Shown piece after piece: positions 3 to 5,101 of a DNA stretch of 5,101 bases. Made by a program: the position numbers and the translations under genes. How positions within the stretch are numbered: the stretch's first letter is position 1; the number at the start of each line of letters is the position of its first letter. Origin of the DNA: Actinomycetota bacterium (GTDB lineage Bacteria > Actinomycetota > Humimicrobiia > Humimicrobiales > Humimicrobiaceae); the NCBI GenBank assembly GCA_023379515.1, contig JAMCQQ010000411.1, positions 1 through 5,101 on the forward strand. Reading direction: 5' to 3'. The notes under the pieces were generated by a model, which did no database searches, was not told the origin of the DNA, and worked only from the letters and a program-made list of their open reading frames with translations.

Positions 3-203
3 GATGAATCGTTTAATAATAGTTTTGTAAATAGCGGGTCAATGTATCAAACTGGAAATGGGAATACAAATCTCCCTCCACCCCCAACTGGTGATACGAC
101 TACTAATAAATCCGAAGTGTTCCCTAATCAATCGATGGCCACCAAGTCTCTTGTATCTAACAATTCTTTTTCAAAAAGTTTTAGGTTTGCATTTAATTTA
201 TGA
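3..203 (+). CDS. 3' end of an unrecognised gene (partial, disordered tail)
   Basis: The third forward frame is open from the window edge to a TGA at 201-203. It codes for about 66 residues rich in Asn, Ser, Thr and Gly, with a PPPP run near residue 24 and no hydrophobic segment. This looks like a disordered C-terminal tail. The overlapping frame starting at 58 is hydrophobic and T-driven, and is less protein-like before 185. The 3' end is uncertain. After 203 the first frame reads a plausible stretch (TPELIIQTWNCKLIK, 211-255) that could be joined in frame if 185-209 were a 25-base GT-AG intron, or if 91-184 were a 94-base intron. No domain is recognisable and the function is unknown. The start lies outside the window. 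Confidence 0.4.
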   Translation, partial: DESFNNSFVNSGSMYQTGNGNTNLPPPPTGDTTTNKSEVFPNQSMATKSLVSNNSFSKSFRFAFNL

Positions 204-627: not shown

Positions 628-2351
628 ATGCAACTTATTGTTTCAATATCGGCGAATTTCGAAAAGGAGAATTTAATAAGTCAAGGGATTTTAAAGTTAT
701 ATCAACATTCTCTAATCCTCTATTCTGTTCAATTTGAGGATAAAAATACGTATATTACCACAGACATCGACAATGTTTCTCTTGATTCTCGAAATAGTTG
801 TGTCAAATTTATGGAGATTGATCAAAATAGTCAATATGAAACATATTATTTCAAAATTCAAGACCGAAGGCATTTTCAACTTTTCATTGAAACCTTAAAA
901 ACATGTCAAGAAACTACAAACCTGTCCTTAAACTTGAATTCGAATTTTAAATCTTTGTATTTCAATACAATTTATCCTGAAGGATCTTATGGTAATATTC
1001 AGCAAAGGTTAGATGACCGTTTAATTGTTTTTCAATCTCAAAGTTCAAAGCAATTAACAAATTTGATTAAAAAATTTGATAACCAGAAACAAATAACCAC
1101 AGAATCTAATGAAAAAAAGGACAAACCTCTTCCCAAAGAAGAATGTTTTTATTGCTCTAAAAAGGATACCTCTTCAAATGTCTCCATGATGATCCATCCT
1201 TTTGTTTCGGTGGATTTACATAACAATCCTATTTATATTTGCAATTCGTGTTATGATGCCTGGAATCTATACCGTACAATCGCCGAAAACGATAATTCTT
1301 TACTTCTCCCAGAAGAATCAAATGAAGAAATTTGTGCTCTTTGTTCTTGTTCTCCAGATTTTCTTACACTCTGCTCTGAATGTCCGAGATCTTATTGTGA
1401 TTTCTGTTTAAAAAGAATAATATCAGAGAACAATTTTCAAGAAATTAAACAGAATTCCGATTCAACTTGGAGCTGTATGGTTTGTGTTAATAAAATTAAT
1501 TTGAAACCTTTAATCATGAATAAGAATTGGCGAATGCAAAATTCCAGAGATTCATTGAATATTCTTTCGAATGTTGATAAGTGTAGTTCAAAAGGTTCTA
1601 ATAAATCCTATTCAACAAAAGAAACATTTAAACACGATAACCAGCTAGATTCATTTGTTTCTCCTAATAACAATAAAAGAAAACGCAAAAAGGAACTATC
1701 GGTTATTTTACCCAATCAAACTTCTACAGATAAATTGGATGAAGTCGATTATTTTGGTCAATATATTCAATCCCTTGAAGTTTATTTCTCAGGCTTGCTT
1801 GCAAAAAAAAGCAACAAATCGAAACAAAAATTTTCTTACCTGACAGAGGACGTATGTTTTCTATGTAAAGATGGAGGAGATTTAATTGAATGCGATTGGA
1901 CAAATCGTGCATATCACTCGGATGTTTCTAGTGTTGTATTTGAGTGTAACTGCTCTAAAGTTTATCATTCGTACTGTTTAAACTTTGAAGTAAAGGAAAA
2001 TGTTGATTGGACTTGTCCCAGACATTTTTGCAGCTCATGTGGCTCAAAGCAGTTAGAATATATGTGTCTCTTTTGTCCTATATCGTATTGTGCTGCTTGT
2101 CCATTGTTAAATGGGGAAAAGGTTTGTTGCTCTATTCTTCTTATCGTAATCTTAATTTTTATTCTTTCTTATAGTTTGGAGGTTCAAAATATTGTGAAAT
2201 TGAATTTGATCACTTAAATAGTACTGTGAAACAAATATGTTGTAGTAATTGCTTAAGACTTTACAATGAAGCATATAAGAGAAATAATTTGATTCCTAAA
2301 GAGCTAAAATACACTAAATTAGGAAGTCTAAAAGATTTTAGTAGCTCTTAA
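628..2351 (+). CDS. ADD and NSD-type PHD/C5HCH zinc-finger protein (chromatin reader), exons 628-2121 and 2175-2351
   Basis: The predicted product is a 556-residue nuclear protein that probably binds histone H3 tails. ATG 628 is the first in frame, after a TAA at 610-612. In order: a possible PH-like fold (about 17-97); an ADD-type zinc module (173-286) with a GATA-like half (CFYC 173/176, CNSC 205/208) and a PHD half (CALC 236/239, C249, C252, C257, C260, C283, C286); a polar linker with KRKRKK at 350-355, a likely nuclear-import signal; an NSD-like PHD (C410, C413, C422, C440 or C442, H447, C450, C463, H466); and a C5HCH finger (C468, C471, C480, C483, C488, C491, then C505, C520, C521, C524). 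Removing the intron at 2122-2174 joins AAG to TTT in phase 0 and restores the last finger. There is no SET, DNA methyltransferase or helicase domain. The zinc modules are clear; ligand specificity is inferred. Confidence 0.85.
676..918 (+). other. Possible PH-like domain of the reader protein
   Basis: Residues 17-97 alternate short hydrophobic strands with polar turns (GILKLYQHSLILYS, then TYYFKI). They end in an amphipathic helix, FQLFIETLKTCQ, like the strand-rich body and C-terminal helix of PH-fold domains. The sequence alone does not show which PH family it would belong to, and no phosphoinositide-binding basic pattern is evident. A histone- or protein-binding PH fold, as in some transcription and chaperone factors, is an alternative. 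The assignment rests on pattern only. Confidence 0.3.
1144..1485 (+). other. ADD-type zinc module (GATA-like plus PHD-like)
   Basis: Residues 173-286 show C-x2-C, then HPFVSVDL, then ICNSC-x3-W, followed by a PHD half with CALC, LCSECPRSYCDFC and WSCMVC. The order and spacing resemble the ADD domains of ATRX and DNMT3, where a GATA-like finger packs on a PHD finger. Those domains read the H3 tail with unmodified Lys4, in ATRX together with Lys9 methylation. The acidic residues that contact Lys4 cannot be assigned without an alignment. Confidence 0.75.
1675..1692 (+). other. Basic patch KRKRKK, likely nuclear localisation signal
   Basis: Residues 350-355 are six consecutive Lys/Arg residues following an Asn run, in a linker that otherwise looks disordered. 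This matches the monopartite nuclear-import pattern and fits the chromatin-reader call. Confidence 0.6.
1855..2252 (+). other. NSD-type PHD plus C5HCH double finger (spans the intron)
   Basis: Residues 410-524 follow the pattern CxxC-x-DGGDLIxC ... KVYHSYCL ... WTCPRHFCSSCG ... CLFCPISYC. This closely resembles the last PHD and its C5HCH partner in NSD methyltransferases and in plant EDM2-like proteins. Two differences are visible: an extra loop between C422 and C440/C442, and Cys (C491) where NSD proteins have His in the FCxxH part. The last ligands (C520, C521, C524) are coded by the second exon, so the finger is complete only after splicing. Confidence 0.75.
2122..2174 (+). other. Intron of the reader gene (53 bases)
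   Basis: The intron begins GTTTGT and ends TTCTTATAG, with a T-rich body. Removing it fuses complete codons (phase 0) and opens a 58-residue exon carrying the missing zinc ligands. If retained, the frame shifts into a hydrophobic tail that stops at 2217, giving a 529-residue product with a broken C-terminal finger. Confidence 0.85.
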
Positions 2352-2513: not shown

Positions 2514-5101
2514 TTAATTCAATCGAGACGGATTGTCACTAAAAAGATCATCGTTATAAATATCAATGCCTTCAAATACATCAATGACACATCTTTTCCA
2601 AAATCTTTCTGAATAATTTTCCGGAGGGACAGCAGATAATCCATCTGAATCATTACATTTTAAAACTATTTTTGTCCATCTTTCTATAAATTTTGACCAA
2701 TTCCATTCTTGTAAAATATCAATAATACCAATATAATAACTTCCAGGCCCTTCAACGACTTGGGCTTTTATAGCACCATCGAGTTCCCTTTTAAACATAT
2801 CTTGTTCATTTATCATCTTACTTTGAAGTCTCCAAAGCCCATGATTAACGGTCGTATTATTTTTATCTATATCATCCTCATTCGCATTATTTGAAGTACT
2901 TACTGAACTTATCTTCGGTTGAATGTTTATGTCAGATAAATTTGTTTCGCTCATAATGAAGTTTTCTTTAGTGTTTTGGTCAATTGAGTTGGCTTTTTGA
3001 TAAATTAAGTCAATACCTTGAAGGTCAGATAAATTAAATTCGGGTTGAGATAAAGAGGAAAACTGTTGAGTTGGTAATACTCGAAACCTTTCTCTCTTGA
3101 CACCAACCAGAAGTGAATAATCCATAAACCCCATACCTAATAGATAAAAAATAATTTTAAAAGAAATTAAATAAAAACTAATGACAATTACTTTGAAGAA
3201 ATAAAATATCTCTCCGGATTTGTCCTGCAAGTGAATTAGCAGTATCAGGCTCAAGTTTTATTGAATGTTGTAAATCGTTATCTTGATATAAAGGGGACGA
3301 TTCGGACTCGTCTCTTTGAAATCTATGCCTTTTATTTAAACGATTGGCTTTAAACCCATATCTATTTACCCAAGAGCCTTTTAAATCATATCTCTCAGAT
3401 AATGAAGCAATAGGGAAAACATTAAGCATTACAACAAAATATATTTCAACTCCATACATTGTGATGCAATGACTTCCTAAAAAGCGCACTATCAGTGAAT
3501 TAGGATTCGATTCTAAATGACTGACATATTTTGACATGATGCGATGAAGGGTTTGCGATTCCTCTTTTTTTGTTGTCTTCACAATACAACGTTGATCAGA
3601 AGAATAAAACATGAATGCCCCGGACCTCCCTTCCGAAAACCTCTCGCGACAAGTAGTCTCAAAGGAATTAGAATATTCAGTAGCACTAATGTTATGCATC
3701 TCTCTAACTTTAGCAAATAACTTAGGACAAAAATCCTTAAATCGAAATTCACGAAATGCAGGAGAAAAAACATTTCTAGCATTTGACATCGCAGTTTGAA
3801 TCACTTTTTTAATAGAACTATTATTACTACTCTGAGAATCACTGCTTACATTACGAGCTTGCATATTTACCGAATCAATTCTTTTCCAACTAGGGAATTC
3901 TGAATTTTCATCTATACCTTTTACGGGACCTTGGGAATATCTAATACCGAATTCAACATCCATAGTGTCTCTCCATTTAACAGTACTGACAGAAGAAAAG
4001 GAGTTCTTTTCTTCATCAATAGATTTTTGGGATAATTGACTATTACGATCGTGCAATTCAATTAGTCCATTTGGAGTCGAGTGTTTATGAAGAGGATTAT
4101 TAGATATTTTAGTAGAATATGTAGAAGATAATTGATCGGAATTTTGAATATTGGTAGGAATTTCATTAGGTTTAAGACCTAAATTCTCAGCTTCTTCAAT
4201 TAAAGCAGCTTCAACATCTTTTGATATAATAGCATCCTATATAAATTCAATTAGAAAAAATATTTTTAAGATTTAAACACGACTAATTTTACTTGTTTTT
4301 TCTCAAGCTTTTCTATCTCAGAAAAAGTATTTCTAATGTCTTCTTCATTTTTATTTATTTGTTCAGTAATAGTACGTGATGTGGGATTTGTATTTCTGAT
4401 ACTTAAACGATGAAATAAGGATTTTGTTGATCCACCAGGTTCACTTTGAATTGATGGCCGTATTCCAATACTTGGATTTTCATCAAAAGAATACATTCGA
4501 ATTTCATCGGGATCATTTGATTCGTTGGGATTTGGACTAGATGCATTATGATTCGATGATTTAGAATTGTGTGGATTTTGATGATTAAGATAGTAGTCCA
4601 ATTCCCTCGAAGCATGAATAATACCTTGGGTCGTAAAATATAGTATTTCAGCTCGTAACGAAGTATTTAAATGTGGTTGCAATAAAAGTCGTTCTTGAGC
4701 GACATTAGCAACAAGATTTTTTGAAGTTTCGAATAAGAAAGGATTTAAATCAGAAAGAGAGAGTTCCGAATAATTTGAATAAATAATAGTTAAGAGTCCC
4801 CAAATTCCTCTCAGTGCATTAAAATATGCAGGCACGGGTCCAATATTATCGGGATTGCTTGCTGCTACAAAGGAAATAAATTCTACTAAAAACACAATAC
4901 ATCCATAAAATACATAAGCTGCGGTATATCTTTTAGACCTTTCCATAATTGAAAGTCTATTGCTAATTGTTCGAGTAAATCCCTTTTCATGCCCTTTATA
5001 AAATTGAAAATTGGCCCATAAACAATAGATAAAAATTAATATGCTAGGAAGATAATATAACAAGAATTTTGGATAATTAGGCGAAAGGCGTTTCCTTCTG
5101 C
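2514..5101 (-). CDS. GPCR-PIPK: seven-helix receptor fused to a PtdInsP kinase, 5' partial; exons 5101-4293, 4236-3192, 3136-2514
   Basis: The product is a membrane receptor with a built-in phosphatidylinositol phosphate kinase, as in Dictyostelium RpkA and the oomycete GPCR-PIPKs. Splicing two introns (4237-4292, phase 0; 3137-3191, phase 1) gives 824 residues, open at the window edge. Helices lie at about 12-34, 58-80 and 89-108, taken as TM5-TM7, with a basic loop (35-57) between the first two as expected for the cytosolic loop 3. A polar linker with charged helices follows (110-420). The kinase (about 422-796) has the glycine-rich GRSGAF, catalytic Lys489 (IVKTT), DLKGS (553-557), MDYSLL (622-627), IID with Asp757, and SERF near the C-terminus. 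Glu769 fits PI4P 5-kinases. TM1-TM4 and the start lie upstream. The bases at 5101-5098 read GCAG, so another acceptor may sit at the very edge. Ligand and G-protein coupling are unknown. Confidence 0.88.
2600..3780 (-). other. PIP kinase catalytic domain (spans one intron)
   Basis: Residues about 422-796 cover the whole PIPK fold. The N-lobe runs from FSPAFREFRFKDFCPKLFAKVRE through the glycine-rich loop to Lys489 and DLKGS. The C-lobe holds MDYSLLVGV, YYIGIIDILQEW and the activation-loop region ending PENYSERF. Between Asp623 and Asp757 lies a segment of about 134 residues, much of it Ser/Asn/Asp-rich. Metal- and ATP-binding residues are all present, so the kinase should be active, making PI(4,5)P2 at the membrane if the type I assignment holds. 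Confidence 0.88.
3137..3191 (-). other. Intron within the PIPK domain (55 bases)
   Basis: On the minus strand the intron begins GTAATT and ends TATCTATTAG, with an in-frame TAG after a few codons. Joining A (3192) to GT (3136-3135) makes Ser618 and gives FLQSMGFMDYSLL, which matches PIP kinases across this point. The reading frame and family motif support it directly. Confidence 0.92.
4237..4292 (-). other. Intron in the receptor-kinase linker (56 bases)
   Basis: On the minus strand the intron begins GTAAAA and ends AATTTATATAG, with TTCTAATTGA as a possible branch site. It joins EKLEKKQ to DAIISKD in phase 0, links the transmembrane exon to the kinase exon in one frame, and removes the TAA at 4268-4266. 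A donor slightly downstream (GTCGTG or GTGTTT) is possible but a weaker match. Confidence 0.82.
4620..4658 (-). other. LR(x)9GI hinge motif after the last membrane helix
   Basis: Residues 148-160 read Leu-Arg, nine residues, Gly-Ile, about 40 residues after the last predicted helix. From memory, GPCR-PIPKs of Dictyostelium and Phytophthora carry a conserved LR(x)3-9GL hinge motif at this place; Ile replaces Leu here. The match to a short motif is suggestive and should be confirmed by alignment. Confidence 0.5.
4776..5066 (-). other. Last three transmembrane helices of the receptor (TM5-TM7)
   Basis: Three hydrophobic stretches occur at residues 12-34 (FLLYYLPSILIFIYCLWANFQ), 58-80 (including VFYGCIVFLVEFISFVA) and 89-108 (including YFNALRGIWGLLTIIY). 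The connecting loop 35-57 carries eight Lys/Arg residues, fitting a cytosolic loop 3. The short loop 81-88 fits extracellular loop 3. A C-terminal cytosolic tail follows. The PSI, PxYF and WG features resemble the cAMP-receptor-like class, but four helices are missing. Confidence 0.75.

What the first reader, a model, noticed from the sequence alone, without database searches (positions are those of the whole stretch)
2514..5101. GPCR-PIPK fusion receptor that can be rejoined across two short introns
Seen: three minus-strand open segments join in frame by GT-AG introns of 56 and 55 bases, putting three membrane helices, a linker and a full PIP kinase in one chain. Known: such fusions are restricted to some protists (RpkA in Dictyostelium, a family in oomycetes). 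A receptor that directly produces PI(4,5)P2 could bypass heterotrimeric G proteins.
Basis: partly seen in the sequence, partly recalled or inferred. Interest (0 to 1): 0.75.

Follow-up and report, generated by a model that had tools for sequence, protein, structure and literature searches.

The report
Chrysophyte receptor fused to PIP kinase
An alga-like protist gene encodes a membrane receptor joined to a lipid kinase, a known but little understood kind of protein, and comparing it with relatives suggests that the conserved motif between the two halves is really the first helix of the kinase.

Summary
On the minus strand 5099-4293, 4236-3192 and 3136-2514 join through GT-AG introns of 56 and 55 bases into an open 824-residue chain cut at its N-terminus. 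Relatives align through both junctions without gaps (29 of 62 and 51 of 66), and 13 of 66 relatives' models break or carry an insertion at intron 2. The chain has three membrane helices, the LR(x)9GI hallmark of GPCR-PIPKs and a PIP kinase (PF01504, E 1.3e-69) with its catalytic residues. Named nearest relatives are chrysophytes; two modelled relatives have seven helices. It is a GPCR-PIPK, a known kind, in a lineage that my paper searches did not show as reported. New here: in both AlphaFold models the LRxGI helix superposes on helix alpha1 of crystallised PIP kinases in one register; in short-linker receptors its spacing to the kinase overlaps the canonical one; a canonical alpha1 profile fits LRxGI best among 509 columns. 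The kinase thus probably starts just after TM7. That profile signal rests mostly on the GI pair; no activity is shown.

The parts
5007..5075 (-). TM5 (chain residues 9-31); the window starts in the loop before it
   Evidence: hydropathy 12-30; aligns with P0007 220-242, in its model helix 220-250; coordinates
4854..4925 (-). TM6 (residues 59-82)
   Evidence: hydropathy 63-81; begins at P0007 270, in its model helix 260-295
4770..4832 (-). TM7 (residues 90-110)
   Evidence: aligns with P0007 331-351, model helix 324-349; below the hydropathy cut-off
4620..4658 (-). LR(x)9GI motif LRAEILYFTTQGI (residues 148-160); proposed alpha1 helix of the PIP kinase N-lobe
   Evidence: exact motif; structural register in relatives; profile and spacing tests
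4293..5099 (-). exon 1 (5' end cut by the window)
4237..4292 (-). intron 1, 56 bases, GT-AG, 16% GC
3192..4236 (-). exon 2: linker and first part of the kinase
3934..3987 (-). second conserved element of the linker (STVKWRDTMDVEFGIRYS, residues 353-370)
   Evidence: similar stretches in relatives P0001-P0004, by eye; coordinates; role unknown
2595..3660 (-). PF01504 PIP kinase domain (residues 462-798), interrupted by intron 2
   Evidence: structural matches of relatives
3577..3579 (-). ATP-site lysine K489 (IVK), equivalent of PIP5K1A Lys-171
   Evidence: role from PMC4570271
3373..3387 (-). DLKGS motif (553-557)
3137..3191 (-). intron 2, 55 bases, GT-AG, 13% GC; position probably shared with relatives
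2514..3136 (-). exon 3 with stop codon 2516-2514
3111..3125 (-). MDYSL catalytic motif (622-626)
2718..2726 (-). IID motif (755-757), equivalent of PIP5K1A Asp-378
2682..2693 (-). specificity-loop start K766-F767-I768-E769; E769 aligns with A381 of PIP4K2B
   Evidence: meaning of A381 recalled

Best explanation
The gene encodes a GPCR-PIPK (type IV PIP kinase) of a chrysophyte-like alga: a seven-helix receptor, of which the window holds TM5-TM7, followed by a PIP kinase with its catalytic residues. Shown by sequence: one chain across two introns, LR(x)9GI, catalytic motifs, and a place in the kinase tree among mostly receptor-bearing PIPKs. Inferred: the LRxGI helix is alpha1 of the kinase's own N-lobe, so the kinase begins about 37 residues after TM7, and the Ser/Asn-rich linker (about 250 residues) is an insertion between alpha1 and the rest of the kinase. 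A ligand-driven movement of TM7 or of receptor dimers would then act on alpha1 and the neighbouring loop, which in PIP5K1A is a dimer contact needed for activity, and would switch phosphorylation of PI4P to PI(4,5)P2 at the membrane. Not shown: activity, lipid product, ligand, dimerisation.
For: PF01504 E 1.3e-69. The named best relatives are chrysophytes. LR(x)9GI exact, found in 35 of 120 listed relatives. Kinase tree of 116 sequences puts the window inside a 67-tip clade (0.946) in which 50 tips have two or more predicted helices before the kinase, and a 48-tip subclade (0.999). AlphaFold of relative P0007 shows seven helices, the LRxGI helix (pLDDT 92-93) and the kinase. VIA-align: in the six PIP5K1A entries listed, P0007 has one offset that puts LRxGI Gly403 on Gly69 of the alpha1 QLGI sequence, and distant relative P0061 puts Gly315 on Gly69 (numbering). 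Of 51 receptors with a recognisable motif 10 have 40-57 residues from this glycine to the FxFKD site and 4 have 63-82; PIP5K1A has 48. A canonical alpha1 profile fits best at LRxGI among 509 columns, with 0 of 500 permuted profiles as good. E769 aligns with A381 of PIP4K2B. P0015, a transcriptome ORF marked complete, holds six predicted helices, LRxGI and kinase together.
Against: Four helices are outside the window. In the tree eight proteins with 6-8 predicted helices (P0061, P0063, P0107, P0112, P0113, P0116, P0117, P0120) lie outside the 67-tip clade, and 17 of its 67 tips have 0-1. A strict alpha1 HMM did not find LRxGI (no hit in 37 of 57, overlap in 4 of the other 20, not in the window). 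The profile's LRxGI register was the top position of its own protein in only 5 of 54, and rank 20 of 799 in the window. Without the G and I columns 29 of 500 permutations do as well; hhalign gives 17% probability locally and 0.1% globally. AlphaFold has been trained on PIP kinase structures, the two alignments share 17 sequences, the aligner prints range ends only, and PIP4K2 offsets vary by up to 2 residues. The animal dimer mode may not extend to other kinases (PMC4570271). The second dilysine residue is F767.
Confidence: 0.8

Rival explanations
1. LRxGI is a separate amphipathic 'helix 8'-like or PI4P-binding element outside the kinase, as PMC5784254 suggests; the kinase hangs on a long flexible tether.
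For: It lies near TM7 and is 159-529 residues before the kinase in 37 of 51 receptors with a recognisable motif; the strict HMM is negative. The paper argues this (discussion part 1 read).
Against: Two models put it on alpha1 in one register. Spacing in short-linker receptors overlaps the canonical range. Both models have another helix between TM7 and LRxGI that could be helix 8 (P0007 371-383; P0061 255-273).
Confidence: 0.2
2. The kinase is inactive or only a scaffold, and the receptor signals through heterotrimeric G proteins.
For: The passages read report no direct activity of a GPCR-PIPK; F767 replaces the second lysine of the dilysine.
Against: K489, DLKGS, MDYSL, IID and E769 are all kept. 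Loss of RpkA lowers PIP and PIP2 in Dictyostelium (PMC3206951, abstract and discussion).
Confidence: 0.12
3. Two separate genes (a membrane protein and a soluble PIP kinase) wrongly joined.
For: 2 of 11 proteins found with the membrane part stop in the linker.
Against: 9 of 11 carry the kinase; 29 of 62 relatives run through junction 1 without a gap; a transcriptome ORF marked complete spans both halves (P0015).
Confidence: 0.03

Closest known systems
GPCR-PIPKs / type IV PIPKs (oomycete D1-D12, RpkA of Dictyostelium; PMC5784254, PMC3206951)
   Same: Membrane part then C-terminal PIPK; LR(x)9GI; DLKGS and MDYSL; kinase groups with mostly receptor-bearing PIPKs
   Different: Chrysophyte-like lineage; 277 residues from the motif glycine to the FRFKD site against 40 in the Globisporangium relative P0049; Pfam finds no 7TM family in the relatives P0006, P0007, P0012 and P0020, whereas P0049 and P0061 match Dicty_CAR
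Type I PIP5K (PIP5K1A)
   Same: Catalytic residues; glutamate at the specificity position; alpha1 helix with a GI pair, if the LRxGI reading is right
   Different: The crystallised kinase domain has no membrane helices and 48 residues between the alpha1 glycine and the FKFK site
Frizzled receptors (fold only)
   Different: Low identity; no kinase in Frizzled (recalled); a shared GPCR fold shows no function

Membership tests
GPCR-PIPK (type IV PIPK) | seven membrane helices before the kinase | tested here: inconclusive
   Window holds TM5-TM7 only; AlphaFold models of relatives P0007 and P0061 have seven
GPCR-PIPK (type IV PIPK) | LR(x)9GI motif between 7TM and kinase | tested here: met
   LRAEILYFTTQGI, residues 148-160
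GPCR-PIPK (type IV PIPK) | PIPK domain with catalytic IVK, DLKGS, MDYSL, IID | tested here: met
GPCR-PIPK (type IV PIPK) | (di)lysine in the activation loop (in most members) | tested here: inconclusive
   K766 kept, second residue F767; the 52 relatives with a letter there have K, R, Q or W
GPCR-PIPK (type IV PIPK) | kinase groups with receptor-bearing PIPKs apart from other types | tested here: inconclusive
   inside a 67-tip clade with 50 tips of two or more predicted helices, but 8 receptor-like tips lie outside it, and no deliberate type II or III set was included
GPCR-PIPK (type IV PIPK) | 7TM part is homologous to other GPCR-PIPKs on its own | tested here: met
   9 of 11 hits to residues 1-180 carry PF01504
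GPCR-PIPK (type IV PIPK) | ligand sensing and coupling to lipid kinase activity | not testable with these tools
   needs experiments; not shown in the passages read either
Canonical type I PIP5K | soluble, no membrane helices | tested here: not met
   membrane helices in the same chain
PI4P 5-kinase specificity | glutamate at the position of PIP4K2B A381 | tested here: met
   E769 by the alignment; E in 51 of 53 rows with a letter, window included; link to specificity recalled (Kunz and co-workers)

The most novel reading that the evidence does not exclude
The family hallmark LR(x)9GI is the alpha1 helix of the PIP kinase itself. In GPCR-PIPKs the receptor is joined directly to alpha1, so TM7 can steer the kinase N-lobe and its dimer loop mechanically; in the lineage of this gene that loop has grown into a long insertion.
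Probability: 0.6. Interest if true: 0.65.

Novelty: new member of a known kind. Interest (0 to 1): 0.48.

Why it matters
How a GPCR-PIPK passes a signal from its receptor half to its kinase half is an open question (PMC6033456, passages read). If LRxGI is alpha1, the question becomes testable: the coupling point is one known helix of a crystallised kinase fold, next to the loop that forms part of the PIP5K1A dimer contact. The find also adds chrysophyte-like algae to the holders; PMC5784254 found only one non-oomycete stramenopile.

Tried and rejected
Own genome: none held. Exact match of one window stretch in viral contigs: 0. P0001 in viral contigs: 14 stretches matched a pattern, none encodes a relative. 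Rfam at gathering threshold and tRNA: nothing. A strict HMM of canonical alpha1 on 57 receptors failed; the softer profile worked, but mostly through the GI columns. Pfam finds no 7TM family in P0006, P0007, P0012 and P0020. Papers: none in the library holds both 'GPCR-PIPK' and 'chrysophyceae'; GPCR + phosphatidylinositol + Ochromonas gave 3 papers that look unrelated from the listing; of 112 papers with three of four terms, the 20 listed hold the word chrysophyte 0 times. 'LRxGI' occurs only in PMC5784254 among the 8 papers; one search listed 2 papers, neither of which I read further for this. PMC12716839 writes LR(x)9GI and says that stramenopile receptors with a PIPK cluster with its GPRch1 group (passages), so its supplements, which I did not read, may list chrysophytes. 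A search for the A381/E362 residues found no paper.

Full report
What is there. The minus strand of 2514-5099 carries a gene cut off at its 5' end by the window. Its three exons (5099-4293, 4236-3192, 3136-2514) are separated by GT-AG introns of 56 and 55 bases with 16% and 13% GC, against 32% for the whole region 2514-5101, and give an open chain of 824 residues. Pfam finds one strong domain, PIP5K (PF01504, E 1.3e-69), split over exons 2 and 3.

The introns are real. In an alignment with 66 relatives 29 of 62 with letters run through junction 1 (window residues 262-277) without a gap, among them P0001 (named Ochromonas danica); the other 33 have gaps there, in a linker that varies. Through junction 2 (610-629) 51 of 66 run without a gap, although one of these, P0010, is not homologous after the junction. 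At intron 2, 10 of 66 models lose homology at the same place (P0003, P0004, P0010, P0014, P0029, P0035, P0037, P0046, P0047, P0059) and 3 carry an extra stretch there (P0016, P0017, P0032), as unspliced gene models would; P0018 and P0056 end earlier (by eye). The intron position is thus probably shared.

What organism. The receptor gene's named best hits are Ochromonas danica (P0001, P0011) and Ochromonadaceae sp. CCMP2298 (P0009); the other top hits are EukProt models without a species name or uncultured. The neighbouring plus-strand gene has 26 relatives, one at 94% identity over 90% of the query from a source without a name and one from Ochromonadaceae CCMP2298. Both genes thus point to a chrysophyte-like alga; the window is AT-rich. 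No genome is held.

Is it a GPCR-PIPK. PMC5784254 (abstract, results part 1 and discussion part 1 read) takes proteins with a 7TM before a PIPK as GPCR-PIPKs and describes the hallmark LR(x)9GI, absent in 9 of its 60 non-oomycete members. The window has LRAEILYFTTQGI, an exact match; so have 35 of 120 listed relatives. In a FastTree of 116 kinase domains (265 columns) the window lies inside a 67-tip clade (support 0.946) and a 48-tip subclade (0.999). Of the 67 tips 17 have 0 or 1 predicted helix before the kinase; 3 of these keep LR(x)9GI, and I did not check which of the others are cut models. Eight proteins with 6-8 predicted helices lie outside that clade, so receptor-bearing kinases are not one group in this tree. 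The outgroup was what the search returned (mainly plant, Dictyostelium and animal PIPKs), so separation from types II and III was not tested.

Does the kinase look active. K489, D553LKGS, M622DYSL and the D757 of IID are present; PMC4570271 (results part 1 read) gives the roles of the equivalent residues in PIP5K1A. E769 aligns with A381 of PIP4K2B and is E in 51 of 53 rows with a letter there, the window included. That this position decides between PI4P and PI5P is recalled from Kunz and co-workers; PMC4310717 (passages read) speaks of one such residue without naming it in the text I saw. The second residue of the dilysine is F767, which none of the 52 relatives with a letter there has. PI4P 5-kinase activity is the best guess, not a result.

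Against that: the register is the top position of its own protein in only 5 of 54 and ranks 20 of 799 in the window; without the G and I columns 29 of 500 permutations do as well; a strict HMM fails, with no hit in 37 of 57 and overlap in 4 of the 20 with a hit; hhalign gives 17% locally (E 0.0014) and 0.1% globally; and AlphaFold knows PIP kinases. I put the alpha1 reading for this protein at about 0.75 and the bolder family-wide mechanism at 0.6.

Mechanism. If alpha1 follows TM7 after some 37 residues, the kinase N-lobe sits directly under the receptor, and the Ser/Asn-rich stretch of about 250 residues is an insertion after alpha1. In PIP5K1A the loop after alpha1 (Asp-84, Leu-86) is a dimer contact, and monomer mutants have very low basal activity (PMC4570271), although the authors think that this dimer mode may be limited to animals (discussion read). 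I infer that receptor movement or receptor pairing acts on this point. Loss of RpkA lowers PIP and PIP2 in Dictyostelium (PMC3206951, abstract and discussion), which fits an active kinase but does not prove it.

Known or new. The architecture is known. PMC5784254 found only Aureococcus among non-oomycete stramenopiles, and its main text does not hold the words chrysophy- or Ochromonas. My searches showed no paper on chrysophyte GPCR-PIPKs, and the listings showed none that equates LRxGI with a kinase helix; only open-licence papers are held, and supplements were not read.

Noticed in passing
window 628-2351, + strand, intron 2122-2174 (53 bases): Convergent neighbour gene: 556-residue Cys/His-rich (PHD/zinc-finger-like by eye) protein; its main exon has no Pfam match at E 1; 26 relatives, one 94% identical; by eye 17 of 26 relatives' models seem to read on into an intron at the same place.
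   Followed up: partly
P0002 and P0127 (relatives): EukProt names gene5506-3924_t (GPCR-PIPK) and gene5504-3923_t (zinc-finger-like neighbour) have consecutive numbers, which hints that this gene pair is adjacent in another genome; that both come from one species was not verified.
   Followed up: no
window 3-203, + strand: C-terminal end of another Asn/Ser-rich open frame entering from the left edge of the window; whether it is a gene was not tested.
   Followed up: no
window 3934-3987, - strand: Linker element STVKWRDTMDVEFGIRYS is similar in close relatives (P0001-P0004) although much of the linker around it is not; it aligns with P0007 616-633, where the model has a short helix and strand, and may be a displaced strand of the kinase N-lobe.
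   Followed up: partly
P0147, P0148: Two metagenome models hold the 7TM part and LRxGI but stop in the linker; cut models and kinase-less receptors could not be told apart.
   Followed up: partly
window 2682-2693, - strand: F767 at the second dilysine position is found in none of the 52 relatives with a letter there.
   Followed up: no
tree: Eight PIPKs with 6-8 predicted helices (P0061, P0063, P0107, P0112, P0113, P0116, P0117, P0120) fall outside the main receptor clade; a separate origin or a tree error was not tested.
   Followed up: no
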